Part shown: positions 1,263-61,339 of the stretch, piece after piece
How positions within the stretch are numbered: position 1 is the first letter of the stretch
Layout: the number at the start of each line of letters is the position of its first letter
Assembly: GCF_003545715.1 (NCBI RefSeq)
Contig: NZ_QVNU01000012.1
Coordinates: forward strand, 1 to 64,000
Length of the DNA stretch: 64,000 bases
Reading direction: 5' to 3'
DNA from: Taibaiella koreensis
GTDB lineage: Bacteria > Bacteroidota > Bacteroidia > Chitinophagales > Chitinophagaceae
Position numbers and translations under genes: made by a program
Notes under the pieces: model-generated
What the model saw: the letters and a program-made list of their open reading frames with translations, nothing else
The model's database searches: none
What the model was told of the DNA's origin: nothing

Positions 1263-1282
1263 AGAGATAATACTATTGCTTA

Positions 1283-1609
1283 ATGAAAAACTTGCTTATT
1301 GTTCTTCTGCTGCTCACAATTTCAAGTTGCTGCTTGGATTTCGCGCGAGCAATGAAAATGATTGTTAAACCCTATAACTGGGAAGGAGAAATAGTCGCTA
1401 TTTTTCGTGATAGTACAGATAGAATGATGCCGAAAGTAGCCTTTAAACATGGAGATACAGCTGTCATCTATGCATATGAAATGTTCGGCATGTTGCAGCT
1501 TGGTGATTCTGTTATTAAGAAAAAGGGAAGTCTAAAATATATACTCAAGAGGAAAGGTGAACCAGCGAAGGAATTTTATCCCAAATGCGATGGAGTTGAG
1601 ATAAAATAA
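1283..1609 (+). CDS. Small secreted/lipoprotein, family A, candidate Rhs immunity protein
   Basis: A 108-residue protein with a hydrophobic N-terminus ending in SSCC, which fits a lipoprotein or export signal, so it probably acts in the periplasm or on a membrane. It starts 20 bp after the Rhs stop codon, the position expected of an immunity gene. The core holds the motif LQLGDSVIKKKG. Related GDS[IV]xK motifs occur in the proteins at 3826-4185, 5245-5598 and 13713-14072; I call this group family A. No catalytic residues are apparent. The immunity role is inferred from position and family recurrence and is not shown by the sequence. Confidence 0.75.
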   Translation: MKNLLIVLLLLTISSCCLDFARAMKMIVKPYNWEGEIVAIFRDSTDRMMPKVAFKHGDTAVIYAYEMFGMLQLGDSVIKKKGSLKYILKRKGEPAKEFYPKCDGVEIK

Positions 1610-1968
1610 TTTTTCATTATAGGCCAATTACAAACCAGACAGCAAACTTTCTTATAGCGCCTCTTTAATAGGGAAGCAGAGTAGAGATGAGTTAGATTGT
1701 TGTACCGTTGTAAGCGCGGCACTTTTCACCCTTAGCTAGTAACGCAAGCCTCGAATCTGTTTTGAAAAGGCTATGATCTTAAATATATTTTATTTTCTTT
1801 AATATTTATCGAGCATTGTCGTACCGTTCGAGCTTTAACTGTGGCCCTTTTTCCCTGAAATGCACTGAATTTGATGCCTAGCTTAGCTTATGAGTGTAAT
1901 CAAAAAGAACTGGAACGAAAAAATTACGTGCATTTTTAATCAATATATAAAAGGACAAACGGAGAGCC
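1610..1968. other. AT-rich intergenic stretch
   Basis: About 360 bases with no supported gene. It is AT-rich, with runs around 1775-1815, and no strong hairpin was found by eye. It separates the Rhs/immunity pair from the next lipoprotein gene and presumably holds that gene's promoter, but I could not place a convincing TTTG-N19-TAnnTTTG match. Confidence 0.4.
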
Positions 1969-2967
1969 ATGTTTAAGATCAATAGAATAGATTTATCTCT
2001 TATTGTAATATTCACATTTCTCGTATCCAGTTGCCAAGTAACTGGCACCTGGACCGATGGCAACATCGATCCCAAGATCGAAGATGCTGTTGAACAGGTC
2101 AACATACGTGCCGTTAATAGTCTGCGAGAAAATAATCCAGACGCGCTTGTTTCACTTTGCAGCGATCCATTATTAGCCGTTGCTAATAAACAGGCCTTAA
2201 CCAACCTGGTACACGCGGCTCATGAGATAATCCTAGTCAAGTCGCGATTTGAAATCAAAAAGCGGTTTTATATGAAAACGACCGCCAAGGGTGCACTAGT
2301 TAAAGTTGCTTCGGGAGCAACAAGCGATCACAATTACGAAATCACATTCAGAACCAACACTACTGAAACGATGGTTATGGTTGGCGAATTTACGAGTGCT
2401 TACCAAACCGTTCTTCTCCTGGCCGTCTATGGAAACTACAACAGTCAATGGAAGCTGAATATTCTGAAGGTGGGCATAAATAAGTTACTATATAAAGACG
2501 CTATTGCCTGGTACAAAGAGGCCAGATCCTCCTACAACTCCAGCGATACCATTGATGCATTCAATAAACTGTCCATCGCCAATAAGCTGCTTAAACCCGG
2601 CGGTGAGTATTGGACTTATGACAAGGAGAAGGAGATTCGGGAATGGACTGCGAATATGCAACAGGTGACCGGCAAACGGTATCACTTTCCTGTAGCGCTT
2701 GTGGTCAACCGGCTCCCAGTAAGCATAATTGGCATCAGCCCGCAATTTTTGTATAATTACTATCCAGAGATTACTTATGTAAGCACGCTTCCGTTAAGTG
2801 ATACGAAGGCGCAGGAAAAAGAGTGTGATAGTGTTCATCACCTGGCGCGGAAGATCTTTCCGTATCTTGCCAGGAACAACGACACCATTTTGTACCGGGC
2901 TTTTAATGATGCACCCAAGACGGGTAAAGAACAAAGCTATGGCTTCGCCCGTGCTACCAGGTTCTAG
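1969..2967 (+). CDS. Lipoprotein of unknown function
   Basis: A 332-residue protein. The N-terminus is an export signal with a lipobox-like LVSSC (Cys near residue 22). Residues 35-75 are helical and resemble the opening of stalk or scaffold lipoproteins (IEDAVEQVNIRAVNSL). The middle is mixed alpha/beta, and residues 165-215 have a tetratricopeptide-like feel (YKEARSSYNSSDTIDAFNKL). I do not recognise a named domain. The start is supported by a purine-rich GGAGAG shortly upstream of the ATG. The stop lies only about 15 bp before repeat R1 copy 1. The gene may belong to the immunity array or be an inserted accessory lipoprotein. Confidence 0.75.
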   Translation: MFKINRIDLSLIVIFTFLVSSCQVTGTWTDGNIDPKIEDAVEQVNIRAVNSLRENNPDALVSLCSDPLLAVANKQALTNLVHAAHEIILVKSRFEIKKRFYMKTTAKGALVKVASGATSDHNYEITFRTNTTETMVMVGEFTSAYQTVLLLAVYGNYNSQWKLNILKVGINKLLYKDAIAWYKEARSSYNSSDTIDAFNKLSIANKLLKPGGEYWTYDKEKEIREWTANMQQVTGKRYHFPVALVVNRLPVSIIGISPQFLYNYYPEITYVSTLPLSDTKAQEKECDSVHHLARKIFPYLARNNDTILYRAFNDAPKTGKEQSYGFARATRF

Positions 2968-2980
2968 GCTATCTATTGCC

Positions 2981-3090
2981 CCTCCTGCTCGTAGCGTCTC
3001 GCTACGACCTGCTTTAGATTATAGGGAATATGCTATTTCTGCGAGCGCGTTACCGTATGTGTCCGTTACGCTTTCGCCTGTGCACCAAGC
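2981..3090 (+). repeat. Repeat R1, copy 1 (palindrome-headed)
   Basis: The head is an inverted repeat with arms CTCGTAGC-like and GCTACGACC around GTCTC. It is followed by a conserved tail containing a TGCTATTTCTGC-type block and a TGTGTCCGTTACG-type block. Homologous copies lie near 9731, 10262 and 14596, all in the same orientation and all just after genes of the small-protein array. Confidence 0.75.
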
Positions 3091-3179
3091 ACCCGTCTTT
3101 TTAAGCTAAACGATAATAGTATGTTCATGTTTTATAGCGGACTCCGGGTGCAATTAAAGGTATTCATAACTACAAAAAA

Positions 3180-3646
3180 ATGACTGTAATTAAACCCGGG
3201 AAGCTCGAGATGATCCCAATACTTATCATACTTCTGCTACCCCCTATTGCAGTAATTTGCTTAATGGGCACTGAGCTACTGAATTTGGTGAATTGCGCAT
3301 GCTAGTCGGAGTATACTGTTTAATCTTTGGCGTGATGCTGCTTAAAGACTATAAGAACTTATATCTCTATACTGATACTTTAGAAATAAACTACACGTAC
3401 TGGCCTTTTATTAAGCCTTCAAATAAATTTCAATTAAAAAGTATTCAGGAATTTAAAGTTGTCAAATACTCTTTGCAAACAAGACTATCAACTGCGGTCT
3501 ACATATCCTGTGTTGCAGGTTATGACATAAAGACAAAAAGGATATCTATGAGAGTAGAAGGCAAGCGAAGTGAATTTCAACTTTTGCTTAATGACCTTAG
3601 AGAAAAAGGCGTCTTGGTAGAGACTGAAGGTGATTATTGGAAATAA
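3180..3646 (+). pseudogene. Family B membrane protein, frameshifted
   Basis: The downstream frame (3293-3646) encodes a protein ending in EFQLLLNDLREKG..VETEGDYW. It aligns along its whole length with the C-terminal two thirds of the intact protein at 8673-9197, which ends REFQVLIDTLRTKG..ECEGDVW. The missing N-terminus is present in another frame: an ATG at 3180 opens a reading frame encoding a transmembrane segment (MIPILIILLLPPIAVICLMG) that matches the paralogue and stops at TAG 3303-3305. Joining the frames at about 3285-3300 restores a protein of roughly 155 residues. This is either a pseudogene or a base-calling error. Confidence 0.7.
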
Positions 3647-3662
3647 ATTCAAAAGGATAGCA

Positions 3663-3700
3663 CACTCCGCTGGCGCACGAACTCCTTCGTGCGTCAGCAA
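3663..3700 (+). repeat. Repeat R2, partial copy (5' hairpin only)
   Basis: This stretch carries CTGGCGCACGA..CTTCGTGCGTCAG, the left hairpin of repeat R2. The right half (AACAACC terminator) is missing. It directly follows the family B stop codon, the usual R2 position. Confidence 0.6.
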
Positions 3701-3825
3701 AGGAAATTTTCTTTACGGCGGTCAATTGATTTTGGTGCTGGATTACCAGCGGGACCTGCGCCAATAAATGTATCAGCCAGATAAACAATGCCTGGATTTT
3801 ACACGATCTCCGGGAAAATAGGGAC

Positions 3826-4185
3826 ATGAAAAAAGTAATTATATTTATTGGATTTTTAACGCTACTTGGGTGCTTTATATTTGTGGGCATGATTTACCAG
3901 AATAATAAAGTAGCAGAAGAATTTGATTTATTTTATGCCAGTTCTTTGTCTGGAAGAATAGTTAAAACTGACAAATACTCCAGAGGAGCAAATTTTGTTC
4001 TTGATAATAACCCAAAGCAATTAACCTTTTATCCCTACATTGACAAAACGTCAAACAACAATAACGTATTTCAGTATTTAGCCAAGCCTGGAGATAGCAT
4101 CTATAAGCCAGCCTATTCAGATAGGCTATTATTGATCAAAAGCAATAAGGTCTATGCGTACACTTTTCAAAAAATAAAAAATTAG
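3826..4185 (+). CDS. Membrane-anchored small protein, family A-like
   Basis: A 119-residue protein with one N-terminal membrane segment (VIIFIGFLTLLGCFIFVGMI) followed by an extracytoplasmic beta-rich domain. The motif KPGDSIYK near residue 90 and the position of the final VYAYTF strand resemble the proteins at 5245-5598 and 13713-14072, so I place it in family A as a divergent member. It ends right before a complete R2 repeat. The function is unknown; a role as an immunity cassette is inferred from context. Confidence 0.75.
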   Translation: MKKVIIFIGFLTLLGCFIFVGMIYQNNKVAEEFDLFYASSLSGRIVKTDKYSRGANFVLDNNPKQLTFYPYIDKTSNNNNVFQYLAKPGDSIYKPAYSDRLLLIKSNKVYAYTFQKIKN

Positions 4186-4195
4186 ATATGCCCCC

Positions 4196-4285
4196 TGCTG
4201 GCGCACAAAATCTCTCGTGTGCTACTAAGAAAAACAACCGATGCTTTCATTGCACATTGGTTGTTTTGTATGTGGATTTGTGTAT
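4196..4285 (+). repeat. Repeat R2 with rho-independent terminator
   Basis: The left hairpin is GGCGCACA..TCGTGTGC. The right hairpin has arms AACAACC and GGTTGTT followed by TTTG. It matches the copies at 5603, 7025 and 8472 and most likely terminates transcription of the 3826 gene. Confidence 0.75.
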
Positions 4286-4382
4286 TAGCGAGGAGTCACT
4301 GCTATCGGAGATTATTTTTAGTCCTTTTCTCGCAGGAGGCGATATCGATGGTTATCCTGCCGTGTCTCGTTAATTTACAAAC

Positions 4383-5111
4383 ATGATCACAAGAAAAACA
4401 AAAAGAAAACTTAGTATCGGCGTTCTCTTAATTGTCATAATTATTATTGGTTATAGTAGTTACTGGTTTATTTCATCGTTTGGTTTAGCCGTAAATCTAC
4501 TGCAAGAAGATGATCCAAGTACGAAACAGATAAGCGAAGAATATAAAAGCCTTTTTGCTACTTCGGCATACACCAAGCTGAGGGTAGAACATACCTATAA
4601 TAGCAAAGTAAGAAGCCCAATTACGCTTATTGATTATGATTCAATTTACAGTATACTTATTTACAAAATAAGTATGAATTCCAAAGCTGGTCTGTCCAAA
4701 ATATTATTCTTGGAATATAAAGATGCAGATCAGAGCCCGAATATTGCTTACAGAGGAATACCCTACAGTTTCATGTTTAAGTACAAAGCGGGCAAAGAAT
4801 CCAGCGCGACACAATTGTTTTTAACAATAAATGGCGACTCCATTCGATCTCTTTTTCATAGTGACACCTTAGTAAATTATGCAGCAACTTTCGAAGATTT
4901 ATCCATCAGTTATACCAAGGATGGGATAAAGGAGATCTATGCAGTCTCAGATGACGCTTTCATAAAAACTAAAATACCTATTAATGTTCTCTTTTTAAAA
5001 AGAGGGATGACAATTTACCTCTTTTTCTTATCGGTAAAGGTGCATGGGAAAAGCATACCAGACAGCTTACTTTACAACTTGATAACCGGAATAGAGAAAC
5101 AGATACGCTGA
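4383..5111 (+). CDS. Membrane-anchored protein of unknown function
   Basis: A 242-residue protein. A basic N-terminus (RKTKRK) precedes one membrane helix (residues 11-32), and a ~205-residue domain lies outside. The domain shows alternating strand-like segments and a hydrophobic patch near residue 205 (YLFFLSV). No family is recognised. It is the largest of the array proteins apart from the lipoprotein at 1969, and it is followed at once by an open in-frame stretch running into the next gene (5113-5244). AT-rich like its neighbours. An immunity or accessory role is inferred only from location. Confidence 0.7.
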   Translation: MITRKTKRKLSIGVLLIVIIIIGYSSYWFISSFGLAVNLLQEDDPSTKQISEEYKSLFATSAYTKLRVEHTYNSKVRSPITLIDYDSIYSILIYKISMNSKAGLSKILFLEYKDADQSPNIAYRGIPYSFMFKYKAGKESSATQLFLTINGDSIRSLFHSDTLVNYAATFEDLSISYTKDGIKEIYAVSDDAFIKTKIPINVLFLKRGMTIYLFFLSVKVHGKSIPDSLLYNLITGIEKQIR

Positions 5112-5244
5112 GTTCTTAACTGGATTTGGCTTTGTCCCTGATGGCACGCGGAAAGGACTTGTGCCCCACCTGGGATTCTGGCCAATATTTATACACAACT
5201 GGAGTAAGAAAGATTTTTGGTTTGTAAAATTTTTGGAAAAAATC

Positions 5245-5598
5245 ATGAAAAATAAGATATCCAAGTCGGCTGGTTTTATTGCTGCGGTCCTGGCGATTGG
5301 CTTTATTATAGGCAGTTTTGTATACCTATCAATAAAAGAAAAACAAACGAATAAACAATTTTATAAAATGGAGATTAAGGCCATTGTGATAAAACGTAGC
5401 GATTGGCAAAAGAGATCGATAGACTTTTATTTAAACAACGGAACTCATTTGAATTTTATAGCTCCCGCGACGGGTAAGCTTGAGATAGGAGATTCTGTTC
5501 ATAAAGCGAGGCAAACTTTTAACTACAGCGTTTTTAGAAAAAATGTCGATGGTGTATATGCAATAGCTGGAAATTACAATTATATGAAGATAGAATAG
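5245..5598 (+). CDS. Membrane-anchored small protein, family A
   Basis: I chose the ATG at 5245 (MKNKISKSAGF), which gives 117 residues with one N-terminal helix (GFIAAVLAIGFIIGSFVYL) and a short external beta domain. The motif LEIGDSVHK and the ending YSVFRKNVDGVY are nearly identical to IAVGDSIQK and YSVYRKNVNGVY of the protein at 13713-14072, so these are clear paralogues 8.5 kb apart. The same frame is open upstream to beyond 5113 and could encode an unrelated remnant. A full R2 repeat follows 4 bp after the stop. Confidence 0.8.
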   Translation: MKNKISKSAGFIAAVLAIGFIIGSFVYLSIKEKQTNKQFYKMEIKAIVIKRSDWQKRSIDFYLNNGTHLNFIAPATGKLEIGDSVHKARQTFNYSVFRKNVDGVYAIAGNYNYMKIE

Positions 5599-5602
5599 TC
5601 TC

Positions 5603-5700
5603 CGCTGGCGCACGCGCCCTCGCGTGTGCCTCAAGAGAAACAACCGACACTAAGATATGGGTTGTTTTTGTACATGGATTTATATGCCTAAAAATCGTAG
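5603..5700 (+). repeat. Repeat R2 with terminator, best-preserved copy
   Basis: Hairpin 1 has arms GGCGCACGCG (5607-5616) and CGCGTGTGCC (5621-5630) around CCCT. Hairpin 2 has arms AACAACC (5639-5645) and GGTTGTT (5660-5666) followed by T's, a rho-independent terminator. A conserved tail, ATGGATTTATATGC and AAAAATCGTAGAT, follows. Confidence 0.85.
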
Positions 5701-5760
5701 ATCTCCAGATCATGAAGGCGATCTCTTACATTGAGGGAATAGCTTTCTTTTAATGCCAAC

Positions 5761-5918
5761 ATCTTTTTCAGCGGGAAGAGATCCTTCCCTTCGCAAGCTG
5801 CGCAAGTTTCGTTCAGGATAACAATGGGGTGTCTACAGTTGGTGCTAATGTTAAACCATAAACATCATATCGTGCTGACATCTGCGGGCACCATGGAAGC
5901 ATCTAAATACCTTTGAAC
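5761..5918 (+). repeat. Repeat R3, copy 1 (~150 bp)
   Basis: It begins near GGGAAGAGATCCTTCCCTTC and passes AAGCTGCGCAAGTTTC and AAACCATAAACAT. It ends with TGCTGACATCTGCGGG and CATGGAAGCATCTAAATACC. Two further copies lie at 10388-10544 and 25018-25172. No protein is encoded consistently across the copies. Confidence 0.8.
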
Positions 5919-5974
5919 AACTTAAGACATTTCCGTAATAGGTGCAGATGCTTTTTCAAAAAAATCGAAAACTA

Positions 5975-6430
5975 ATGGATTTAAAATATCTTTTTGTTGC
6001 ATTAGTAGCACTCTGCTCTTGTCAACCTGATCGAAGCAGTAAGAACCAAATGATGAATAGCAATTTTGCGAAGAAGTATAATGATGCGTTTTTGAAAGAT
6101 AGCCTAATCAAAAAAGTGACTATGGCTGGAGACACCAGCGCATATGAAGAGTTATATTACACGTTTACACTAAGCGACCATAAAAAAGAATGGTTTTACT
6201 ATGCTTTTGAAATGGCTCATAATTTCGATTATCCCAGAGCATATTTGCACTTATATTTTATATTAAAAACAGATTCCGGGAGTCAACAGAAGACTAACCA
6301 GCTAGCCAATTATTATCTTTTAAAGGCGTATGAAAAAGGAATTGAAGATGCCAGGGATGAAATTGAAGAAAGGTTGGGCAGACCTTCAAAAATACCAAGT
6401 TCTATTGAATACTTAAAATCATTTGAATAG
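5975..6430 (+). CDS. Lipoprotein with Sel1/TPR-like helices
   Basis: I prefer the ATG at 5975, which gives MDLKYLFVALVALCSC, a lipoprotein signal (Cys at residue 16); a GTG at 5942 is possible but adds an odd leader. The mature part is helical. The stretch from YAFEMAHNFDYPRAYLHLYF through LANYYLLKAYEKGIEDA looks like one or two Sel1/TPR-type repeats. Such helical-repeat lipoproteins are frequent among immunity proteins of contact-dependent toxins, but no family can be named here. It lies in the array between repeats R3 and R2. Confidence 0.7.
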   Translation: MDLKYLFVALVALCSCQPDRSSKNQMMNSNFAKKYNDAFLKDSLIKKVTMAGDTSAYEELYYTFTLSDHKKEWFYYAFEMAHNFDYPRAYLHLYFILKTDSGSQQKTNQLANYYLLKAYEKGIEDARDEIEERLGRPSKIPSSIEYLKSFE

Positions 6431-6501
6431 CCTTGTGCTTAGGATTCGTACACCAGCGTGTGGACTACTACGGAGACCACGGCTCCCATACAACTAGTGT
6501 T

Positions 6502-7029
6502 ATGACAAAGGCCATTTTAATTTCAACGATACTGTTGTTTAAAGGACTTCAGTTATTCTCTCAACAGTCTGACAACGATTCATTCAATCTCAAACAGTTT
6601 AAGGCCTGCTGGAAGCTAAAGGATATGGTTTATGTGGCCAATGGAGGACGCTACGGTCAGGAGGAGGCGGAAAAATTATTCGTAGGTAAGATAGTTTGTT
6701 TTAATTCAAACCCACTCCATATTTTAGATGATACAATCGTCAATCCTCGCTTCAGGATCGTAAAAGAAAAGACTCAGCAATTTACTGTCAGAAATTTCCA
6801 GGTATATAAGGATATTTCAAAATGGTTCAAAATAAGCAAGGACTCAATTTATGTAGTCTATATGACTTCAGGCATTAGCATAACGAATAACCCGACAGCA
6901 AAAATAAAGCGAACCAAGGCCTATGCCTATGAATTTGCTTACGATGGTGATTATCTATTTTTCCCATTAAATGGAAGTTTATTTCGCTTGAGTAAACTGG
7001 AAATATCGGATTTCCGAAGCGAGCGATGA
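6502..7029 (+). CDS. Secreted protein of unknown function
   Basis: The ATG at 6502 gives a signal peptide (MTKAILISTILLFKGLQLFS) with cleavage near SQQ. The mature protein is ~155 residues. It has a lipocalin-like impression: an early FKACWKLKDMVYV strand, a central Phe/Val-rich strand region and a final YLFFPLNGSLFRLSKLE. The lipocalin idea is a guess. The upstream frame from 6433 has no signal logic and is not used. Its stop codon is exactly where homology to the 3' flank of the unrelated gene at 7996 begins, which suggests cassette exchange. Confidence 0.7.
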   Translation: MTKAILISTILLFKGLQLFSQQSDNDSFNLKQFKACWKLKDMVYVANGGRYGQEEAEKLFVGKIVCFNSNPLHILDDTIVNPRFRIVKEKTQQFTVRNFQVYKDISKWFKISKDSIYVVYMTSGISITNNPTAKIKRTKAYAYEFAYDGDYLFFPLNGSLFRLSKLEISDFRSER

Positions 7030-7163
7030 ATAGCGGCTTTTGCTAACCCATCAATGTCCCCGCTGGCGTACGCGCCCTCGCGTGTGCCTCAAGAGAAACA
7101 ACCGATACTAAGATACGGGTTGTTTTCGTACATGGATTTATATGCTTAAAAATCGTAGATTCC
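7025..7163 (+). repeat. Repeat R2 with terminator (extended left flank)
   Basis: The copy contains both R2 hairpins (GGCGTACGCG..CGCGTGTGCC and AACAACC..GGTTGTT). It also shares GAATAGCGGC.TTTGCTA and CATCAATGT with the copy at 8472, so the homologous segment begins at the stop codon of each upstream gene. Confidence 0.8.
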
Positions 7164-7213
7164 AGATAGAGATTGATTGAGAAATAAAAAAACGCTGCTA
7201 AGAAAAAATAACT

Positions 7214-7759
7214 ATGAAATTAATAACGATATCTGTGGTGCTATTTGGATTCCTATCTAATGCTACAGCACAAAAAACGGATTTTATCGTTTGTACTTGG
7301 GTCGTAGCCGAAGGTGCCCAGGTTTACAACATTATTCTTAGTGAAAATAATCGAACTATAGACTCGCTTTACAATCAAATTGAACAGAGTAGTTTTCACA
7401 AGTACACACACGTACGGCAGTATATTGTAAGCACAGGAGCCCTTCAATACATTTCTGAATACATTACTGCTCATTGCAATTCCGAAACCAATTTGTCATC
7501 TAAAAGTCAGGATGAATACCATATTGGCTACCGGATAAATAAGGATGCCCTACAATGTTATATAGAAAAAAAGGATCGAGCAATTCCTTATTTCAAAAGT
7601 CTTATTGATTGGATAAAAAAATCAAAATATTCTAGCGAATGTGCAGGGTTTGTATCTTCTCTAAAGCAACATTACATCGAAGGAAAAGGTTTCCCTTATA
7701 ACAGGCTTGACCAGGTTACATTTGAAAATACGTTAAAGAGGAAAGGGCAAAGCAAATAA
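7214..7759 (+). CDS. Secreted protein of unknown function
   Basis: A 181-residue protein with a clear signal peptide (MKLITISVVLFGFLSNATAQ). The mature region contains a polar helical middle and two Cys residues near 97 and 118, with a third near 143, and is otherwise unremarkable. No homologous family is recognised and no paralogue is seen in the window. It occupies one cassette of the small-gene array between an R2 repeat and a stretch with a CGCAAAGG-type intergenic motif (7775-7815). Functional assignment is not possible from sequence. Confidence 0.7.
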   Translation: MKLITISVVLFGFLSNATAQKTDFIVCTWVVAEGAQVYNIILSENNRTIDSLYNQIEQSSFHKYTHVRQYIVSTGALQYISEYITAHCNSETNLSSKSQDEYHIGYRINKDALQCYIEKKDRAIPYFKSLIDWIKKSKYSSECAGFVSSLKQHYIEGKGFPYNRLDQVTFENTLKRKGQSK

Positions 7760-7995
7760 GAAAGAGCCATGTGGTTAACCGCGGAGTTCGCCAAGCCGTA
7801 CGCAAAGGGCGCAGAGCGGCTGGCACAAAATGTTTCATCAGGCGCTAACTTTACTGTAAAAGGGAATAAGCCGGTGGCTAACAGCGGATATAATCTGCTC
7901 CCCTTCCGGGCAAGTGGACGCGCATAGGATACCGTGTTTCGTAACGAAACGATGGGCAAGACTTTTTATAAAAAAGCAACATCTAAAAACACGAA

Positions 7996-8475
7996 ATGAT
8001 GAAATCAATAGAGGAGATCAAATCAATGCTGGTGAAAGAATTGCTTCGAAGGTTGCCCGGTATAGCATCGAATACAAAAGCGCCTGACTATTACAACGAG
8101 CTGCTGGGAGATACCTCTTATTTGTTGACAGGTTTGCTGGGGCTAAACCTTCGAGAGCAGTTTTCAGATTGGCCCTCACAAAATTGGATGGACGATAGTC
8201 TTATTACAAAGGTGGCATTACAAGATAAAAAAATGGCGCTTTGGGGTGAAGCCATCTGGGGTGTTATGAACGATACGGAACAATGGGTTGATCCGCTTTA
8301 TTTTGAAATGGAACTTGATGAAAGCAAAAGTAATTATACAAGCTATACTTTTTTATTTTCCGATCTTGAATACAAAGCAATACCCTATTCTTTTTTCAAA
8401 CATAATCGCTCTTACTGGCAATCGACAAAAAGAAACTGGAAATATAGGATTTGCGAAGGGGTAAATGAGCAGTGA
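7996..8475 (+). CDS. Cytoplasmic protein of unknown function
   Basis: A 159-residue protein with no signal peptide or membrane segment, unlike most of its neighbours. It opens with an amphipathic helix (SIEEIKSMLVKELLRRLPG) and is rich in Trp and aromatic residues. The segments MALWGEAIWGVMNDTEQWVDP and YTFLFSDLEYKAIPYSFF alternate polar and aromatic residues. The profile resembles soluble immunity proteins, but I cannot name a family. The R2 repeat begins at its stop codon. Confidence 0.7.
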   Translation: MMKSIEEIKSMLVKELLRRLPGIASNTKAPDYYNELLGDTSYLLTGLLGLNLREQFSDWPSQNWMDDSLITKVALQDKKMALWGEAIWGVMNDTEQWVDPLYFEMELDESKSNYTSYTFLFSDLEYKAIPYSFFKHNRSYWQSTKRNWKYRICEGVNEQ

Positions 8476-8612
8476 ATAGCGGCATTTGCTAGCACATCAA
8501 TGTTTCTGCTGGCGCACGAACCCTTTCGCGTGCCCCAAAAGAAACAACTGATGCTTTAGTGCATGGGGTGTTTTCATACATGGACTTTTATGCTTAAAAA
8601 TCATACATTCCC
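8472..8612 (+). repeat. Repeat R2 (diverged copy)
   Basis: It has the same layout as the copy at 7025, with CTGGCGCACGAA..TTTCGCGTGCC and AACAACT..GGGTGTT arms. The conserved TATGCTTAAAAATCATA tail follows. Confidence 0.75.
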
Positions 8613-8672
8613 AGGTAGCATGATTGAGACATGAGCAGGGAGAAATATAGAGCAGCGCTATAAATTACTCAG

Positions 8673-9197
8673 ATGGTAAAAGACTATGAAAGGCCTTCAA
8701 GATTACTACAAAAGATGGACATGATGAAAGTCTTCTCCGGCAAGTGTGTGTTGCTGATTCCACTAATCGTTATTTTAATTTCTAATTCCTTTGTCTTGGT
8801 GTTCATTCCCTTTAATAGCTTTTCCTTATTTGAAATGCTAGGGGTTTGCATCAGCATTTTACTTTTAGATGTCTTTTGGCTATTTCTTGGATTGAGACCT
8901 TATAAAACTTTTGATCTTAAGGAAGATACTTTAGATATAAGCTACTCTTTTTCCAAAATTTTTAATCCGGTTTTGTTCTCATCAATTAAAGAAATAGCGG
9001 AAATAAAAATCGTGAAATACGCAATGCAAGGTAAAATTCCGCCAGTCATGTATATTAGCTATTTCCACACCAAGACGGTAAAAAAGAAGAGGATATTTTT
9101 TAGAGTAGGAGATAAAAAACGGGAATTTCAAGTCTTAATTGATACTTTAAGAACCAAAGGGGTTAAAATTGAATGCGAAGGTGATGTATGGTTCTAA
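8673..9197 (+). CDS. Membrane protein, family B (intact)
   Basis: A 174-residue protein with two closely spaced membrane segments (about residues 26-50 and 57-77). A soluble C-terminal domain follows, ending REFQVLIDTLRTKG and ECEGDVWF. It is the intact homologue of the frameshifted gene at 3180-3646: shared blocks are EIKIVKYAMQ/EFKVVKYSLQ, YIS and the tail. The layout (two helices then a compact alpha/beta domain) resembles bacterial PH-type membrane proteins, though I cannot confirm that fold. It is one cassette of the small-gene array; function unknown. Confidence 0.75.
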   Translation: MVKDYERPSRLLQKMDMMKVFSGKCVLLIPLIVILISNSFVLVFIPFNSFSLFEMLGVCISILLLDVFWLFLGLRPYKTFDLKEDTLDISYSFSKIFNPVLFSSIKEIAEIKIVKYAMQGKIPPVMYISYFHTKTVKKKRIFFRVGDKKREFQVLIDTLRTKGVKIECEGDVWF

Positions 9198-9252
9198 GTA
9201 TTCTCCCAGCTGGCGCAATCAAGGATCCTAACCTCAAAATTTGAAATAATTT

Positions 9253-9699
9253 ATGGAAAAAGTGATCGGTTTAATGCTTTTGCTATTACCGTTAGCGTCT
9301 CGTGCCCAATATATAGAAGTTAGCAGATTTAACTACAATAAAGAAAGGATATACACTACTTACTACATAAGTGCAGATTATATTAATTTGCAACGTGTTG
9401 TTGACACAAGTAAATTAGAAGACAGGTTAAATAAAGAAATAGCAATCGTTTGTGACAGCGATTATAAAAAGATCGAAAAGTTTTTAATTTCTAAACATCC
9501 TTCGATAAATGAGCCGTTGAAAAATAGCCCCTACCAAATTGTTAAAGCAGATAAAAATGGGAAAATATCTGGCTATAATTTGAGCGTAAGCGCTACATAT
9601 GACTTGTTTGAAGAAATGAAAATTTTTGTCAATAAGAATATTTCCGGACCGGGTAATTTACAATTGAATAAAATAATTGATTATTTCCTTTGTGAATAA
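9253..9699 (+). CDS. Secreted protein of unknown function
   Basis: A 148-residue protein with a signal peptide (MEKVIGLMLLLLPLASRAQ). The mature ~129 residues begin with a Tyr-rich strand region (YNKERIYTTYYISADYINL) and continue with Lys-rich helices. Two Cys residues lie near positions 76 and 147. No family is recognised. It sits 55 bp after the family B gene and just before R1 copy 2, so it fits the one-gene-per-cassette pattern of this array. Confidence 0.7.
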   Translation: MEKVIGLMLLLLPLASRAQYIEVSRFNYNKERIYTTYYISADYINLQRVVDTSKLEDRLNKEIAIVCDSDYKKIEKFLISKHPSINEPLKNSPYQIVKADKNGKISGYNLSVSATYDLFEEMKIFVNKNISGPGNLQLNKIIDYFLCE

Positions 9700-9730
9700 A
9701 TTCCAGTTGCCCTTGCTGGCTTACGATTCT

Positions 9731-9830
9731 CCACTAGGTCGTAGCCTCGTGCTACGACCTACTTTATTAAGATATCTGGCGCGTGCTTATTTCTGCCAAC
9801 GCATTATTGCGCGTGTCCTTTACGCCAAAC
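9731..9830 (+). repeat. Repeat R1, copy 2
   Basis: The head palindrome is GGTCGTAGC and GCTACGACC around CTCGT. The tail TACTTTATTAAGAT, GGCGCGTGCTTATTTCTGCC and GCGTGTCCTTTACGCC matches copies 3 and 4. It lies between the genes at 9253 and 9875. Confidence 0.75.
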
Positions 9831-9874
9831 GGGTAAACGAACGGATTCGTGTGCTAACCTGAGAAGAAAATTTC

Positions 9875-10390
9875 ATGAAAATAAAGGAGTTGTATTATTA
9901 TACTTTTTATAAGTTTTATAGACTTATAAATTCATCTTCTGTTACCAGGGGGAACGCTAAGTTTAAGGCAATATTGTTATTAATAGTGATAGAGAGTTGG
10001 GTTGCTTTCTCCTTTATTAATTATTATGATTTGCTGGTTTTACAAAAGCAAAGGCATATCTCAAGCGCATTAATAGTCTCACTAATCGGTTTTACATGGT
10101 TCATTAAGTGGTTATTCTTTATTAGGAACGACAATTGGATTAAATACGTTGAAAGATTTGATCAATGGCCTCCCCAAAAGAACCGGAAAGGTACCTTGAT
10201 AGTAATGCTGGTAATAACCCTTTTGACTTTAAATTTCATCATTCCATTTTATCTTAATCCTCCACCAGGTCGTAGCGTCGCGCTACGACCATTATTAGAT
10301 TACAGGGCGCATGCTATTTCTGCCAGCGCGCTAGCGCATGTGTCTTTGCCCGCTAGCGCACGGCTCCTTTCGTGTGTCGTATACCAATGA
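9875..10390 (+). CDS. Membrane protein, family C, with repeat-derived C-terminus
   Basis: A 171-residue reading frame. The N-terminal motif ELYYYTFYKFYRL, three membrane segments, and WIKYVERFDQWPPQKNRKG before the last segment match the intact family C protein at 14117-14554 (YYYFFYKVYKL, WIKYVSEFDQWPPKRNNKG). The family-like part ends near residue 128 (FYLN). The remaining ~43 residues are encoded by R1 copy 3 plus part of R2, which reads through in frame. The natural C-terminus has therefore probably been replaced by the repeat. Function unknown; candidate membrane immunity protein. Confidence 0.75.
   Translation: MKIKELYYYTFYKFYRLINSSSVTRGNAKFKAILLLIVIESWVAFSFINYYDLLVLQKQRHISSALIVSLIGFTWFIKWLFFIRNDNWIKYVERFDQWPPQKNRKGTLIVMLVITLLTLNFIIPFYLNPPPGRSVALRPLLDYRAHAISASALAHVSLPASARLLSCVVYQ
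10262..10382 (+). repeat. Repeat R1 copy 3 joined to a partial R2
   Basis: The palindrome GGTCGTAGC/GCTACGACC with its tail (about 10262-10350) is followed directly by the R2 left hairpin (CTAGCGCACGGCTCC..CGTGTG). It overlaps the 3' end of the family C gene and supplies its last ~43 codons. Confidence 0.75.
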
Positions 10391-10544
10391 TTTTTTTAAC
10401 AGGAAGAGATCCTTCCCTTCACAAGCTGCGCAAGTTTCGGATCAGAATGACAGCGTGATGCTTACAGCCGAGGGCAAGCACAAAACCATAAACACAGTTC
10501 ATGCTGATATCTGCGGGCGCCATGGAAGCATCTATATGCCTTTG
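10388..10544 (+). repeat. Repeat R3, copy 2
   Basis: Blocks shared with the copy at 5761 are GGAAGAGATCCTTCCCTTC, AAGCTGCGCAAGTTTCG, ACCATAAACA, GCTGATATCTGCGGGC and CATGGAAGCATCTA. It lies between the family C gene and the 3' end of the - strand T9SS gene. Confidence 0.8.
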
Positions 10545-10625
10545 GGCCCCACCGGCAAGGGTATTGTTCGAGGCCAGTGCCAAAAAATGTTGCCGTTAAT
10601 CGCGTCAAACGGTTCTTCTTCTTCC

Positions 10626-12299
10626 TTACCGGATCACCAGCCTTGCCGCCGTTGCCACGCCGTCTGCTGTTTGTAGCCTGGTCGTATACACGCCCTGGGG
10701 TAGATGGCTCAACTGTATCGATAGCTCTTTTGTTCCCTTTGCTATAGCTTGCGTATGTACCTTTCTACCGCTCATGTCGTATACCTGCAGCGTGGCTGCA
10801 GCTGCTACAGGCTTTGCCATTTGTAACCTGAAGTTACCATTGCCGGGGTTGGGATAGAGGCTGTAAGTATTGTCCTGTACCGGCTGTACGATGCCTGTAG
10901 GCGCCGCGCTGCTGGTGTCTGTAAGCGCCCATAGCTCCTCGCCGAAAGCGTTGTCGAAAAAGCCCCTGAAGTATAGCGTATCGTGATAAATGAGGAAATT
11001 GCTGCTCTGTAAAGGATCTTCCAATGAGGCGCCGGGCGGCGCTATCATCTTTGTACCGGCTTCGGTGCCATCGCTTACCGCCAGCCGCTCATCGAAGATG
11101 GATTTGGTAAAAATAAAGTACAGCTTCTCCTTATACACCTGGAATCTGCCCGGGTTTGATGGAACGCTGCCGGGATTCAGGTCTTTTACCATATGGGTAT
11201 TGGCGACGGTACCGTCGGTTACCCATAGTTCGGTACCCGCCATCGGCTCCCGGGCTGAGAAATATAGCTTGTCTTTATAGATCACAAAATTGCCGGGCAA
11301 GCTGTAGTCATTTCCAGGATTAATGTCTTTGAACAGCTGGGTGCCTGCGGTGGTGCCATCCGTTACCCATAACTCAATACCTTTCGTATCGTTACCGCTA
11401 CTAAAGTAGAGCTTGTCTTTATATTCAAAAAAATGGCAAGGCCCGGAATTAGACGGTCCCGGATTGATATCTTTTAGCATTTGCGTACCGGCAACGGTGC
11501 CATCTGTTACCCATAACTCATTGCCGTTAATGCCATCGTCGGCCGAGAAACAGAGCTTGCCCTTGTAGAGCGCAAAAGAGACCGGCGAGGAGCTTTCGGT
11601 ACCGGGATTAATGTCCTTCAGCATGCGGGTGCCTGCGGCGGTACCGTCGGAGGTCCACAGTTCGGTTCCGTTGCCGGCGGTAGTAGCCATAAAAAACAAT
11701 TTACCGTTGTACACTTTCATATCCAATGGGTAGGATGGATCTGCACCCGGGTTAATGTCCTTTACCATCATGGTACCGGCGCCGGTGCCGTCGCTTACCC
11801 ACAATTCACCGCCGTGCACGCCATCGTCGGCCATGAAAAAGATCTTCTTATTATACACGGTAAAGGTTTGTGATCCTTCAAAGGCTGCTATCAGGTCGGT
11901 ACCGCAGCCCGTGGCGCCGGGCCCTATATCTTTAACCAATTGCGTACCTGTGGCAGTACCATCCGTCGTCCATAGCTCGGTACCGGTGGCATCTGTAAAG
12001 GCCATGAAAAATAATTTATTATCGCAAAGTGTAAATTCCTTGGGTACGGAAAATTCCGATACGCCCGTATTCAGGTCTTTAAGCATATTGGTTCCTGCAG
12101 CTGTGCCATTGCTGGTATACAGCTCCAGGTTGTATCCCGATTTACGGGCACTCATAAACATCTTATCCTGATATACAACATACCCTGATGGGCTTGCATT
12201 GCCGTTGTTGGGGAAGATATCCACGCACCGGAAAACCTGTTGCGTCTGTGCAGTCAGCGCGGAGAAAAACATCGTTGTCAATAGGGCAGGAATTTTCAT
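10626..12299 (-). CDS. T9SS-sorted ELWxxDGT-repeat protein
   Basis: The ATG at 12299 gives an export signal (MKIPALLTTMFFSALTAQTQ); an in-frame ATG at 12326 would add nine polar residues. The body holds about eight ~48-residue repeats, each ending ELW[VT][ST]DGTxAGTxMxKDINPG and containing a YxxKLYFxA strand pair. This is the pattern of a beta-propeller-like repeat. The last ~75 residues (NTYSLYPNPGNGNFRLQM to the end) are a T9SS type A sorting domain, so the protein is predicted to be cell-surface attached or secreted. Such proteins are common in Bacteroidota with unknown ligands. GC-richer than the small genes on both sides, and oriented against them. Confidence 0.85.
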   Translation of the reverse strand: MKIPALLTTMFFSALTAQTQQVFRCVDIFPNNGNASPSGYVVYQDKMFMSARKSGYNLELYTSNGTAAGTNMLKDLNTGVSEFSVPKEFTLCDNKLFFMAFTDATGTELWTTDGTATGTQLVKDIGPGATGCGTDLIAAFEGSQTFTVYNKKIFFMADDGVHGGELWVSDGTGAGTMMVKDINPGADPSYPLDMKVYNGKLFFMATTAGNGTELWTSDGTAAGTRMLKDINPGTESSSPVSFALYKGKLCFSADDGINGNELWVTDGTVAGTQMLKDINPGPSNSGPCHFFEYKDKLYFSSGNDTKGIELWVTDGTTAGTQLFKDINPGNDYSLPGNFVIYKDKLYFSAREPMAGTELWVTDGTVANTHMVKDLNPGSVPSNPGRFQVYKEKLYFIFTKSIFDERLAVSDGTEAGTKMIAPPGASLEDPLQSSNFLIYHDTLYFRGFFDNAFGEELWALTDTSSAAPTGIVQPVQDNTYSLYPNPGNGNFRLQMAKPVAAAATLQVYDMSGRKVHTQAIAKGTKELSIQLSHLPQGVYTTRLQTADGVATAARLVIR

Positions 12300-12379
12300 A
12301 TTGGTCTTATTTTCCTGGTAAGACATGGGTAGAACAGATGCTGTTGGGCAAAAGGTTTTAGCATTCTTGCTCTTTTATC

Positions 12380-12715
12380 ATGAATAAAAGAATGACTCCT
12401 ACCCAGGCTTCCCCGTATGCATACCGCTATGCTAGTCATTCCGAAATTCCATTTGGCGGTAATGGCTCATTTTTCCCTGGGCTTAAGCGTTCAAACCTAT
12501 TGCTTACGAATACACCTTATATGATCCTGATTATACTGGTTATACCTTTTAATGTTTACTTGCCTGGCTTTAGGGAGGAGTGGAAAAGCCACGTGAAAGC
12601 ATTTGACAAATGGGCCAAACGGAGCAATAGATTGGGCAGTTGGATTGTCTTCAGTATTGTTATGCTATCTTTATTGAATTTTTATTTTTCTTTGTATCTC
12701 TTTTACCAAATATAG
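12380..12715 (+). CDS. Membrane protein, family C, 5'-truncated
   Basis: From about residue 38 onward the protein (LLLTNTPYMILIILVIPFNVYL, then KAFDKWAKRSNRLGSWIV, ending YLFYQI) aligns with the family C protein at 13232-13621. That neighbour has LLTNNITWGIVFLL, AFNKMPSRKNNIGGWMV and ends FLYYQT. The first ~35 residues are unrelated to any family C N-terminus and lack the YYxFYKxY motif. The 5' part has therefore probably been lost and replaced by the flank of the divergent T9SS gene. Whether a protein is made is doubtful; a pseudogene label would also be reasonable. Confidence 0.5.
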   Translation: MNKRMTPTQASPYAYRYASHSEIPFGGNGSFFPGLKRSNLLLTNTPYMILIILVIPFNVYLPGFREEWKSHVKAFDKWAKRSNRLGSWIVFSIVMLSLLNFYFSLYLFYQI

Positions 12716-12751
12716 CCCCTGCAGGATCGCATACCCATAAAATTCTATAAA

Positions 12752-13210
12752 GTGAGAAAAGTTGAGATCGTCCTTATATTGTTATCCGTGACGGCAATAA
12801 TTTTAAGATGCTTCGCCATTGAAGGTGGTATTTTACTGACTTTACTTTCCTTTTCGCTTCTTTCCATTTTCTATCTTTTGGGAAGTTTCCTGCTTCTAAA
12901 TGGTATTCCCGTAAAAAGGACATTCAAAAAAGATGCTTATCTGCAGGTCAGTTGGAAGCGTATACTCTGGTCTGTTCTTGTGGGTATCGTATGGTCGATG
13001 GCTCTTCCGGGAATCCTTTTTTCGCTTAATCGGTGGTGGGGAGCGCAGATGATGCTGGTAACGGGCCTGCTATTGGTGCTACCGGTATTGATCATAAGCT
13101 TATTCCTTTATGTACCCAGACCATCGGCGTTTCATGCTGCTATTTTGATCCGGTCGGCTGTCCTATTTTCAATCGGGTTTGCCTTTTTTGTCTCGCAAAT
13201 ATGGTTATAG
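12752..13210 (+). CDS. Small polytopic membrane protein
   Basis: A 152-residue protein starting at GTG 12752, with four to five predicted membrane segments (around residues 5-25, 26-50, 72-90, 98-118 and 128-150). Short charged loops (VKRTFKKDAY) separate them. No family is recognised. The general look recalls small GldL-like or other uncharacterised Bacteroidota membrane proteins of this size, without specific motifs. It lies between two family C genes with tight spacing (22 bp to the next start), so co-transcription is likely. Confidence 0.65.
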   Translation: MRKVEIVLILLSVTAIILRCFAIEGGILLTLLSFSLLSIFYLLGSFLLLNGIPVKRTFKKDAYLQVSWKRILWSVLVGIVWSMALPGILFSLNRWWGAQMMLVTGLLLVLPVLIISLFLYVPRPSAFHAAILIRSAVLFSIGFAFFVSQIWL

Positions 13211-13231
13211 AACAACTTTTGATAGCTGGTA

Positions 13232-13621
13232 ATGATACGCACATACTATTTTGTTTTCTATAAGCTATATAAGGTTTTCGAGTCTGCCCCTTCACGTTGG
13301 TGGAGTGAAATGAAGGCTGCTATTAGCATGGTGTTCCTGGAGGTTTGCCTGATTACCGCTTTACTTACTTATTTTGTTTTGTTGACGGGGAAGTATGAAG
13401 GTTTATTGACCAATAATATTACCTGGGGTATCGTTTTTTTGCTCACTGTCCCACTGAATATCTACTTGTTTGTATTCTCCGATCAATGGAAAGATTACGT
13501 GGTTGCGTTTAATAAAATGCCCAGCCGTAAAAATAATATAGGTGGCTGGATGGTATTGGGCTGCATACTATTAATAGTATCCAATTTTGTGTACACCATT
13601 TTTCTATATTATCAAACTTAA
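13232..13621 (+). CDS. Membrane protein, family C
   Basis: A 129-residue protein. It has the N-terminal motif YYFVFYKLYKVF, two membrane segments (residues 30-50 and 60-82), the signature WKDYVVAFNKMPSRKNNIGG, then a last membrane segment and the short tail FLYYQT. It is an intact family C member; relatives are at 9875, 12380 and 14117. The conserved W-x(2)-YV-x(2)-F loop with N-x(2)-G probably faces the cytoplasm between helices two and three. Role unknown; membrane immunity against pore-forming or lipid-targeting toxins is a speculation from context. Confidence 0.75.
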   Translation: MIRTYYFVFYKLYKVFESAPSRWWSEMKAAISMVFLEVCLITALLTYFVLLTGKYEGLLTNNITWGIVFLLTVPLNIYLFVFSDQWKDYVVAFNKMPSRKNNIGGWMVLGCILLIVSNFVYTIFLYYQT

Positions 13622-13712
13622 TGAGGGCTTTCCTTTTGATTGATTGCGTCCTGTATGTTCGAATGGCCTCCGGCGCAACAGTAAAAGCAGTATGGGCTAT
13701 AAGCAACACATC

Positions 13713-14072
13713 ATGTCAGAATACATTAAGATATTAAGTAAAAGCAGGCCCTACATTGCAGCAGTAACAGCTGTCGCTGTATTGATGTTCTGGATAATAT
13801 CCATGAGAACGGCAGGTATTAAAAATAACGATGCTTTTTACAGGCAGTCCTTTTCAACTTTAGTCGTCAATTCAAAGTCCTTTTACCGAAGATCCATCGA
13901 ATTTCAATTAGGTAATGGTCTGAAAATATATTTCATGCCGAGTGATCAAAAAATTGCCGTGGGAGATTCTATACAAAAAGAAGCCAATACCAACAAGTAT
14001 AGCGTTTATAGAAAAAATGTAAATGGTGTCTATGATTTCCTGGCGTATTGCGACATCAGCGATTCTCCGTGA
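13713..14072 (+). CDS. Membrane-anchored small protein, family A
   Basis: The ATG at 13713 (MSEYIKILSKSRPY) gives 119 residues with one N-terminal helix and an external domain. The motif IAVGDSIQKEANTNKYSVY and the following RKNVNGVY are shared almost residue for residue with the protein at 5245-5598. It is a clear second copy of family A in a different position of the array. An earlier in-frame ATG at 13692 would add only a short polar leader. No R2 repeat follows it directly; the next gene starts 44 bp later. Confidence 0.75.
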   Translation: MSEYIKILSKSRPYIAAVTAVAVLMFWIISMRTAGIKNNDAFYRQSFSTLVVNSKSFYRRSIEFQLGNGLKIYFMPSDQKIAVGDSIQKEANTNKYSVYRKNVNGVYDFLAYCDISDSP

Positions 14073-14116
14073 TCTCGTGTCCGGTTTATTGGCAATGCAT
14101 TTCCTGAATACTGAAA

Positions 14117-14554
14117 ATGGGTACCATGAAGCTTCTCAAGCTGTATTACTACTTCTTTTACAAGGTTTATAAACTCTTTAAATTTATAGAACCTAAATCC
14201 GAAAGTGTAACAATACTAAAGATCAAATCATCTACGGTTTTGGGTGCGATAGAAATCCTGGTCTTGGGTTCATTTTATTTATACTCATGCGTTTTTTTGA
14301 AAAAAACGGCTAACAGTCTATCATTGTTTCTTCTAATTGGTGGGCCAATGTTCGTTATGCTATCTGATTGGCTATTGCTTACACGAAACGACAAATGGAT
14401 CAAATATGTAAGCGAATTTGACCAATGGCCCCCTAAGAGAAATAACAAAGGCAGCTTAATCGTACTTATTATACTAGCAGTAATAATCAGCAATTTTGCT
14501 TATTCAGCTCATTTGTTTGAGCAAAATAGATCGGCAATTTATGGAACTCCGTAA
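14117..14554 (+). CDS. Membrane protein, family C (best-preserved)
   Basis: A 145-residue protein with KLYYYFFYKVYKLF at the N-terminus, two central membrane segments, and WIKYVSEFDQWPPKRNNKG ahead of the third. It is the closest relative of the protein at 9875 and shows what that protein's natural C-terminus should look like: ~15 residues after the last helix and no repeat-derived tail. The start may be ATG 14117 or ATG 14126. It is followed by an R2 repeat interrupted by R1. Confidence 0.75.
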   Translation: MGTMKLLKLYYYFFYKVYKLFKFIEPKSESVTILKIKSSTVLGAIEILVLGSFYLYSCVFLKKTANSLSLFLLIGGPMFVMLSDWLLLTRNDKWIKYVSEFDQWPPKRNNKGSLIVLIILAVIISNFAYSAHLFEQNRSAIYGTP

Positions 14555-14565
14555 TTACGTTCCTC

Positions 14566-14866
14566 GCTGGCGCACGAATCCTTTTGTGTGCCGCCCCACC
14601 TGGTCGTAACGTCTCGCTACGATCTACTTTATTAAGATTACCAGGCGCGTGCCGATTTCTGCCAGCACGTTATCGCATGTGTCTTTGCGCCCCGGATAGC
14701 AGCGAAAAGCCCGGAACCTATTCATTAAGGCATGTCATTCGTGTGCCGGTTGAAATAGCACTTCTCCCAACGGGCACACGCCTCCTCTCATATGCTGTTA
14801 AAGAAAACAACCAAAGCTTAGTGCCTTGGTTGTTTTTGTATGCGAACTTTTATATGCTTCAAAATG
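14566..14866 (+). repeat. Repeat R2 interrupted by R1 copy 4
   Basis: The left R2 hairpin is at about 14568-14594 (CTGGCGCACGAA..TTTTGTGTGCC). The right half lies about 200 bp further on: AACAACC..GGTTGTT and TTTATATGCTTCAAAA, ~14806-14866. Between them is R1 copy 4 (about 14596-14692; arms GGTCGTAAC and GCTACGATC) plus ~100 bp of unassigned sequence. This order is what insertion of an R1-bearing segment into R2 would give. Confidence 0.7.
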
Positions 14867-61299: not shown

Positions 61300-61339
61300 A
61301 CAAATTGGTCCAATAGCATTTTAATTTAAACATCCTATT

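What the first reader, a model, noticed from the sequence alone, without database searches (positions are those of the whole stretch)
1283..14554. Array of ~18 small AT-rich cassettes behind an Rhs toxin end: a candidate poly-immunity locus
Directly after an Rhs C-terminus come some eighteen genes of 90-330 residues, mostly secreted, lipid-anchored or membrane proteins, on one strand. They have recurring paralogue families and one repeat-type spacer per cassette. Poly-immunity loci are an established pattern next to polymorphic toxins, but the families here do not look like named immunity families. The whole set could be an uncatalogued collection of envelope-targeted immunity proteins.
Basis: partly seen in the sequence, partly recalled or inferred. 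Interest (0 to 1): 0.75.

Follow-up and report, generated by a model that had tools for sequence, protein, structure and literature searches.

The report
Orphan immunity genes behind Rhs toxin
Behind a bacterial toxin gene lies a row of about eighteen small genes, most of which probably protect the cell envelope against toxins of rival bacteria; rows of this kind are known, but most of these gene families are not in the catalogues searched.

Summary
The array is real: 18 AT-rich plus-strand frames (one truncated), 17 of 18 envelope-type by hydropathy and my reading, three paralogue groups. Spacer repeats follow 9 of 18 genes, not every one. The Rhs end is one of three near-identical copies in the genome; similarity stops where the toxin tail begins, and the tails differ.

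The immunity reading is supported, unevenly. 12 of 18 genes have homologues within 11 kb downstream of Rhs-core frames, against 0 of 23 control frames (a biased control: most loci were fetched with array families). Family B (4 genes) directly follows an undescribed toxin tail ending YFGxDxFYPG in other Bacteroidota; a reverse search from the tail found family B next to it in 7 of 8 places. 15 of 32 family B members match the Bfi1 immunity family, below its cut-off. Family C lies directly after an Rhs tail once, g07 at the usual distance. Family A is orphan in 9 of 11 loci; g02, g08, g09, g10 and g12 have no firm homologue.

Best explanation: an orphan-immunity array left by successive replacement of toxin-immunity modules at an Rhs locus: a known kind with mostly new families. 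The spacer repeats, different in each congener, remain unexplained. No function was tested.

The parts
3..1262 (+). 3' end of an Rhs gene: core to about base 385, then a 291-residue variable tail (putative toxin domain)
   Evidence: TIGR03696; core shared with C6 (95%) and C24 (88%) over exactly 385 nt, tails unrelated
1283..1609 (+). g01, small lipoprotein-like, 20 bp after the Rhs stop: cognate immunity by position
   Evidence: homologue in array L055
1969..2967 (+). g02, 332-aa lipoprotein-like; immunity by position only
   Evidence: no homologue
2976..3072 (+). spacer element R2
   Evidence: 90.8 bits
3293..3646 (+). g03, family C, truncated paralogue of g11, appears broken
3663..3744 (+). 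spacer element R1, weak copy
   Evidence: 32.3 bits
3826..4185 (+). g04, weak relative of family A
   Evidence: homologue in L099 without Rhs near
4191..4278 (+). spacer element R1
   Evidence: 86.1 bits
4383..5111 (+). g05, one transmembrane stretch
   Evidence: homologue in Rhs array L090
5245..5598 (+). g06, family A
5598..5680 (+). spacer element R1
   Evidence: 93.9 bits
5975..6430 (+). g07, lipoprotein-like by reading; homologues 779-913 bp behind Rhs cores
6502..7029 (+). g08, exported by reading; immunity by position only
   Evidence: no homologue
7056..7138 (+). spacer element R1
   Evidence: 91.8 bits
7214..7759 (+). g09, exported by reading
   Evidence: weak match in array L055, E 7.7e-5; none
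7996..8475 (+). g10, cytosolic-looking, pI 5.0; immunity by position only
   Evidence: no homologue
8502..8586 (+). spacer element R1
   Evidence: 88.4 bits
8673..9197 (+). g11, family C; homologue 8 bp after an Rhs toxin frame in L088
9253..9699 (+). g12, exported by reading; immunity by position only
   Evidence: no homologue
9726..9826 (+). spacer element R2
   Evidence: 105.2 bits
9875..10390 (+). g13, family B; end reads into a repeat
10257..10352 (+). spacer element R2
   Evidence: 100.8 bits
10626..12326 (-). interrupting ELWxxDGT-repeat protein with T9SS sorting tail, not part of the array
12380..12715 (+). g15, family B
12752..13210 (+). g16, polytopic membrane protein; homologue next to the g11 homologue in L088
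13232..13621 (+). g17, family B; Bfi1-family match E 6.8e-5, model pLDDT 91
13692..14072 (+). g18, family A
14117..14554 (+). g19, family B
14560..14848 (+). closing spacer: weak R1 (14560-14639), R2 (14591-14691), R1 (14764-14848)

Best explanation
A heterogeneous orphan-immunity array at a polymorphic Rhs toxin locus of a Chitinophagaceae-type bacterium. When a new toxin tail with its immunity gene recombines onto the Rhs core, the older tail is lost or decays while its immunity gene and spacer stay and are pushed downstream. The kept genes would let the cell survive toxins it no longer makes but that kin or neighbours still deliver. Since almost all products sit in the envelope, the toxins they answer should act there. 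Family B most likely blocks a membrane-acting tail (YFGxDxFYPG type) as a three-helix membrane protein. Shown: the anatomy, three Rhs cores with different tails, homologues behind Rhs toxins, the family B-toxin pairing. Inferred: displacement as the cause of this very array, protection, the envelope target.
For: Three Rhs cores in the genome, alike over exactly 385 nt and then unrelated. 12 of 18 genes with homologues within 11 kb downstream of Rhs-core frames, 0 of 23 controls. Family B: directly after an Rhs-core or YFGxDxFYPG frame in 15 of 28 loci fetched by family B alone, and next to the tail in 7 of 8 places found by the tail. 15 of 32 members match the Bfi1 immunity family. Family C 8 bp after an Rhs toxin frame, g16 homologue next to it (L088). 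g07 homologues 779-913 bp after Rhs cores (in the window core end to g01 is about 0.9 kb). Intermediate states elsewhere: Rhs core pieces between immunity-type genes in L088 and L106, shortened tails of 56, 86 and 66 residues before family B in L052, L065 and L148/L160. Like arrays in congeners L055 and L089. Model in print: PMC5361080, passages.
Against: g02, g08, g09, g10 and g12 have no firm homologue. Family A is orphan in 9 of its 11 loci. Family B lacks a neighbouring toxin in 13 of 28 and 12 of 18 loci. In the 22 loci fetched by the Rhs core alone only g07 recurs by direct search, and family B in 2 (L105, L112) by iteration. No toxin-tail remnant could be shown in the window's own spacers, nor an Rhs core (best tblastn E 0.20). 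The Bfi1 profile also rings, below cut-off, in Bacillus subtilis among 14 control genomes. A minus-strand T9SS-type gene interrupts the row.
Confidence: 0.8

Rival explanations
1. Junkyard: displaced immunity genes that drift without function and persist only because loss is slow.
For: g03 appears broken, g13 has a repeat-derived end, no transcription data; generic terminator scan of the region is at chance level (11 found, 11.5 expected).
Against: 16 of 18 frames look intact (all but g03 and g13); envelope-type starts are kept. No selection test was run.
Confidence: 0.12
2. Integron-like or other mobile cassette array in which the spacer repeats are sites for a recombinase.
For: Full-length R1 repeats found only in the array and on C6; each congener array has its own repeat family, as species-specific attC sites do in large integrons (recalled).
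Against: No recombinase was seen among the frames of the array, though no integrase search of the genome was made; repeats follow 9 of 18 genes and often enclose two; R2 also has copies on C21 and C19.
Confidence: 0.05
3. The genes are not immunity genes but small secreted or membrane effectors or surface proteins gathered beside Rhs.
For: Most products carry export signals or membrane stretches; family A is mostly orphan elsewhere; five genes have no firm homologue.
Against: Family B and C homologues stand in the immunity slot directly after toxin tails; family B relates to the Bfi1 immunity family.
Confidence: 0.07

Closest known systems
Heterogeneous polyimmunity loci (PMC3482391; section 39 read in full)
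   Same: Tandem unrelated immunity-type genes, one orientation, no toxin gene among them, content differing between relatives
   Different: Lies directly behind an Rhs toxin end; gaps of 55-376 bp with hairpin repeats in the first part (g15-g19 are packed at 21-70 bp); families not in Pfam; no recombinase seen beside it
T6SS immunity gene arrays by sequential displacement, Vibrio cholerae (PMC5361080; passages read)
   Same: Rows of orphan immunity genes behind a module with a changeable toxin; displacement model
   Different: Here an Rhs protein with a signal-peptide-like start, longer array, repeat-bearing spacers; displacement inferred, not seen between strains
Acquired interbacterial defence (AID/rAID) clusters of gut Bacteroidales (PMC12247911, abstract and outline; PMC7604300 passages)
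   Same: Arrays of orphan immunity genes in Bacteroidota, shown there to protect
   Different: No recombinase seen here; next to a toxin gene; SUKH-type genes not found among the 18
Bfi1 family immunity protein, NCBIfam NF053699 (partner of Bfe1, Bacteroides fragilis T6SS; PMC6692515 passages)
   Same: 15 of 32 family B members match, g17 over positions 2-125 of 131; small membrane proteins beside a toxin gene
   Different: Scores far below the 100-bit equivalog cut-off (best E 6.8e-9); toxin tail not compared with Bfe1; mostly Rhs-borne here

Membership tests
Heterogeneous polyimmunity locus (features from PMC3482391 section 39) | Several structurally unrelated immunity genes in tandem | tested here: inconclusive
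   At least three unrelated groups; immunity role supported by neighbourhood for B, C and g07, by position only for g02, g08, g09, g10, g12
Heterogeneous polyimmunity locus | No toxin gene or cassette between the immunity genes | tested here: met
   tblastn of the full Rhs protein against 1263-14936: best E 0.20; the one interrupting gene is an ELWxxDGT/T9SS-tail protein
Heterogeneous polyimmunity locus | Same orientation, short intergenic distances | tested here: inconclusive
   All 18 on the plus strand with one minus-strand interruption; gaps 55-376 bp for g01-g13, 21-70 bp for g15-g19
Heterogeneous polyimmunity locus | Content differs even between strains of a species | tested here: inconclusive
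   Content differs between congeners L055, L088, L089 and the window; strains of one species not compared
Polymorphic Rhs toxin locus | Conserved Rhs core with sharply changing C-terminal tails | tested here: met
   C2, C6 and C24 cores 88-95% identical over 385 nt, then no similarity
Bfi1 family immunity protein (NF053699) | Score at or above the curated 100-bit cut-off | tested here: not met
   g17 22.8 bits, own-genome search 23.1 bits; related, not a member
Bfi1 family immunity protein (NF053699) | Neutralises a cognate periplasm-acting effector | not testable with these tools
   needs co-expression
rAID cluster | Associated tyrosine recombinase | tested here: inconclusive
   None among the frames scanned against Pfam in 1-14554; C2 upstream of the window start is not available

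The most novel reading that the evidence does not exclude
The spacers are the working part: each lineage owns one kind of hairpin spacer, and an incoming toxin-immunity module is taken in by homology to the resident Rhs core on one side and the resident spacer on the other, so that the spacer is copied at every event and the locus collects immunity genes step by step. That would explain why congeneric arrays share immunity families yet carry unrelated spacer repeats.
Probability: 0.13. Interest if true: 0.7.

Novelty: new member of a known kind. Interest (0 to 1): 0.42.

Why it matters
It adds several envelope-immunity families absent from Pfam and NCBIfam, and for one of them names the partner: a toxin tail (YFGxDxFYPG) found in several orders of Bacteroidota, mostly on Rhs proteins, with a three-helix membrane immunity protein distantly related to Bfi1. 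That is a ready-made pair for testing, and its orphan copies suggest that immunity to this toxin spreads and persists without the toxin. The lineage-specific spacers offer a way to ask how such arrays grow.

Tried and rejected
Fold search of the family B model against solved structures gave 4 matches, best E 5.3; profile search of solved chains gave none. A single-sequence model of g18 had pLDDT 57.7 and was not used. Rfam: nothing in 1-15000. Terminator scan of 1200-14940: 11 found, 11.5 expected, so 'terminator-like' for the second R1 hairpin is my reading only. Bacteroidota-type promoter pattern (motif recalled): 5 in the window, 1.76 expected, none in an array spacer. Toxin-tail remnants in the window's spacers: my reading suggested some (before g04, g06, g10), but blastp of spacer translations against 1291 frames gave only three short matches at E 0.011-0.025, so they are not claimed. 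Repeats as genome-wide REP: the exact first-hairpin pattern occurs at 6 places, on C1, C2, C6, C10 and C21, but full R1 does not spread; R2 has two copies outside C2 and C6. Both genome searches scored 150 candidates only (of 618 and 418), so weak copies may be missed. Literature: listings; none of the listed titles and abstracts describes this array or the YFGxDxFYPG tail, and only six papers were opened (PMC3482391 section 39 and passages; passages of PMC5361080, PMC7073777, PMC6692515, PMC7604300; abstract and outline of PMC12247911), so absence from print is not shown.
Full report
What is there. The window is bases 1-64000 of contig C2 (95,124 bases) in a genome of 5.94 Mb and 24 contigs. 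It opens at the contig end inside an Rhs gene: frame 3-1262 has the Rhs-associated core and a 291-residue tail. Behind it lie 18 small plus-strand frames, g01-g13 and g15-g19. Between g13 and g15 sits a minus-strand ELWxxDGT-repeat protein with a T9SS tail.

Proteins. GC of the frames is 0.31-0.44. By hydropathy, lipobox pattern and my reading of the starts 17 of 18 look like envelope proteins; g10 does not. Comparison of all with all gives B (g13, g15, g17, g19; E 2e-28 to 2e-8, and 1e-8), C (g03, g11; 8e-26) and A (g06, g18; 6e-22), with g01 and g04 at E 0.001-0.009 to A members. No Pfam or NCBIfam model reaches its cut-off for any of the 18. The one telling sub-threshold match is g17 to the Bfi1 immunity family (22.8 bits, cut-off 100).

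The toxin gene is polymorphic. The first 385 bases of the window recur on C6 (95%) and C24 (88%), and similarity stops at the end of the core. C24 holds a 1482-residue Rhs protein with DUF6443 and a start that I read as a signal peptide, next to a 1121-residue partner. The tails and following genes on C24 and C6 differ from the window's. C6 and C24 end in, and C19 ends beside, what I read as an IS3-type element. The assembly probably broke at these repeats, so the locus may be larger than the window shows.

Relatives. Of 244 genomes of the family, the own one included, 17 carry family B, 8 family A and 3 family C; 119 of 244 carry this kind of Rhs core at E <= 1e-8. I fetched stretches covering the 22 family B places outside the own genome (18 stretches), 12 stretches with family A or C, and 22 Rhs loci picked from the list. 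In a congener (L055) an Rhs gene is followed by a like array: three family A members, one of them g01-like, two family B members and a weak g09-like gene. In another (L089) an array behind an Rhs gene ends with a g11 homologue. In a third (L088) a g11 homologue lies 8 bp after an Rhs toxin frame, then a g16 homologue, then another Rhs core with a tail. g07 homologues lie 779-913 bp behind core pieces in L105 and L106; in L106 core pieces recur between immunity-type genes.

Control. Of 18 array genes 13 have a homologue in the 94 held loci (E <= 1e-4) and 12 have one within 11 kb downstream, same strand, of an Rhs-core frame; of 23 control frames from 18.5-53 kb, 2 have any homologue and none such a place. 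This favours the array, because 8 of the 12 genes (g03, g06, g11, g13, g15, g17, g18, g19) were baits for fetching; g01, g05, g07 and g16 were not, but g01, g05 and g16 were found in loci brought in by such baits. In the 22 loci fetched by Rhs core alone only g07 recurs by direct search; by iteration family B also appears in two of them, L105 and L112. g02, g08, g09, g10 and g12 have none. Family A is in 11 loci, of which only L055 and L090 have it behind an Rhs core. Directly after an Rhs-core frame stand 95 of 919 small frames in these Rhs-rich loci, and 21 of 85 family B hits of g13.

Family B and its toxin. A scan of named species genomes with family B, through one peptide pattern, gave 28 loci in Flavobacterium, Chryseobacterium, Pedobacter, Mucilaginibacter, Chitinophagaceae and others. 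In 12 of 28 a family B gene directly follows an Rhs-core frame, in 14 a frame with YFGxDxFYPG-type motif near its end, in 15 either; in the 18 family stretches it is 4, 6 and 6. Seven loci are in both sets, so 18 of 39 distinct loci have the neighbour. Of 24 motif frames (three of them counted twice) 23 are followed by family B within 150 bp. Since those loci were chosen for family B, I searched with the tail alone: 8 places in 7 of 396 genomes of the order, family B directly downstream in 7 of 8; four places had been seen before, and of the four new ones three have it. The own genome has no match to the tail, so its four family B genes are orphans. In L052, L065 and L148 (L160) only 56, 86 and 66 residues of tail remain before family B. 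In Taibaiella soli (L131) the tail is a gene of its own behind one that I read as Hcp/TssD-like, with three family B genes after it (not checked by profile).

Family B and Bfi1. 15 of 32 members match NF053699 at E <= 0.01, best 6.8e-9, and every other family matches one member. Against: the scores are far below the cut-off, and in 14 control genomes the same profile rings weakly in Bacillus subtilis and Bacteroides ihuae. Bfe1, the partner of Bfi1, kills when sent to the periplasm (PMC6692515, passages). The model of g17 has pLDDT 91 and pTM 0.82: an N-terminal helix, two long helices, a short one and a last long one. A three-helix membrane protein paired with a glycine-rich hydrophobic tail fits immunity to a membrane-acting toxin; that step is inference.

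Spacers. Element R1 has two hairpins, R2 a strong and a weaker one. Folded singly, ten copies or hairpins are matched by 0 to 7 of 200 shuffles; on the R1 alignment only 2 of 21 pairs show changes on both sides. R1 at 80 bits or more: five in the array, one on C6. R2: four in the array, two on C6, one on C21, one near the end of C19. They follow 9 of 18 genes. Arrays L055 and L089 have repeats at like places but of other sequence; a blastn of the window's spacers against relatives found only short matches in L100 outside the own genome. So genes are shared and spacers are not. I have no tested explanation.

Conclusion. The poly-immunity reading stands, strongest for family B, then C with g16, then g07; weaker for g01, g05 and family A; by position only for g02, g08, g09, g10 and g12; g04 is linked only through family A. 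It is a known kind of locus (PMC3482391 section 39; PMC5361080 passages). New are most of the families, the toxin partner of family B and the repeat-bearing spacers. How this Rhs protein is delivered is open; a signal-peptide-like start suggests Sec export (inference).

Noticed in passing
window 54436-63529: A second, 2287-residue Rhs gene, followed by a gene that I read as having a T9SS-like tail (61340-61849) and two exported genes of 230 and 220 residues that look like paralogues: another possible toxin-immunity locus.
   Followed up: partly
C2:64742-70402 (L009), minus strand: A third Rhs-type gene (1886 residues) on the same contig, just beyond the window, facing the second one.
   Followed up: no
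L106 2400-16000 and L105: In another genus of the family Rhs core pieces recur many times between immunity-type genes, like frozen steps of tail replacement.
   Followed up: partly
L090 8659-9471 and L099 9412-10133: Family A is joined to, or stands next to, a similar lipoprotein-like domain that I read as NTF2-like.
   Followed up: no
window 5753-5915, 10381-10544 and 25021-25168: A further repeat of about 150 bp, shared by two array spacers and one place outside the array.
   Followed up: no
window 24070-24195: Tandem repeat of the 7-base unit CCAATAC, 18 copies.
   Followed up: no
C6, C24 and C19 ends (L019, L066, L125): Contig ends lie in or beside what I read as IS3-type sequences, next to R2 elements on C6 and C19: the true locus is probably larger.
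   Followed up: partly
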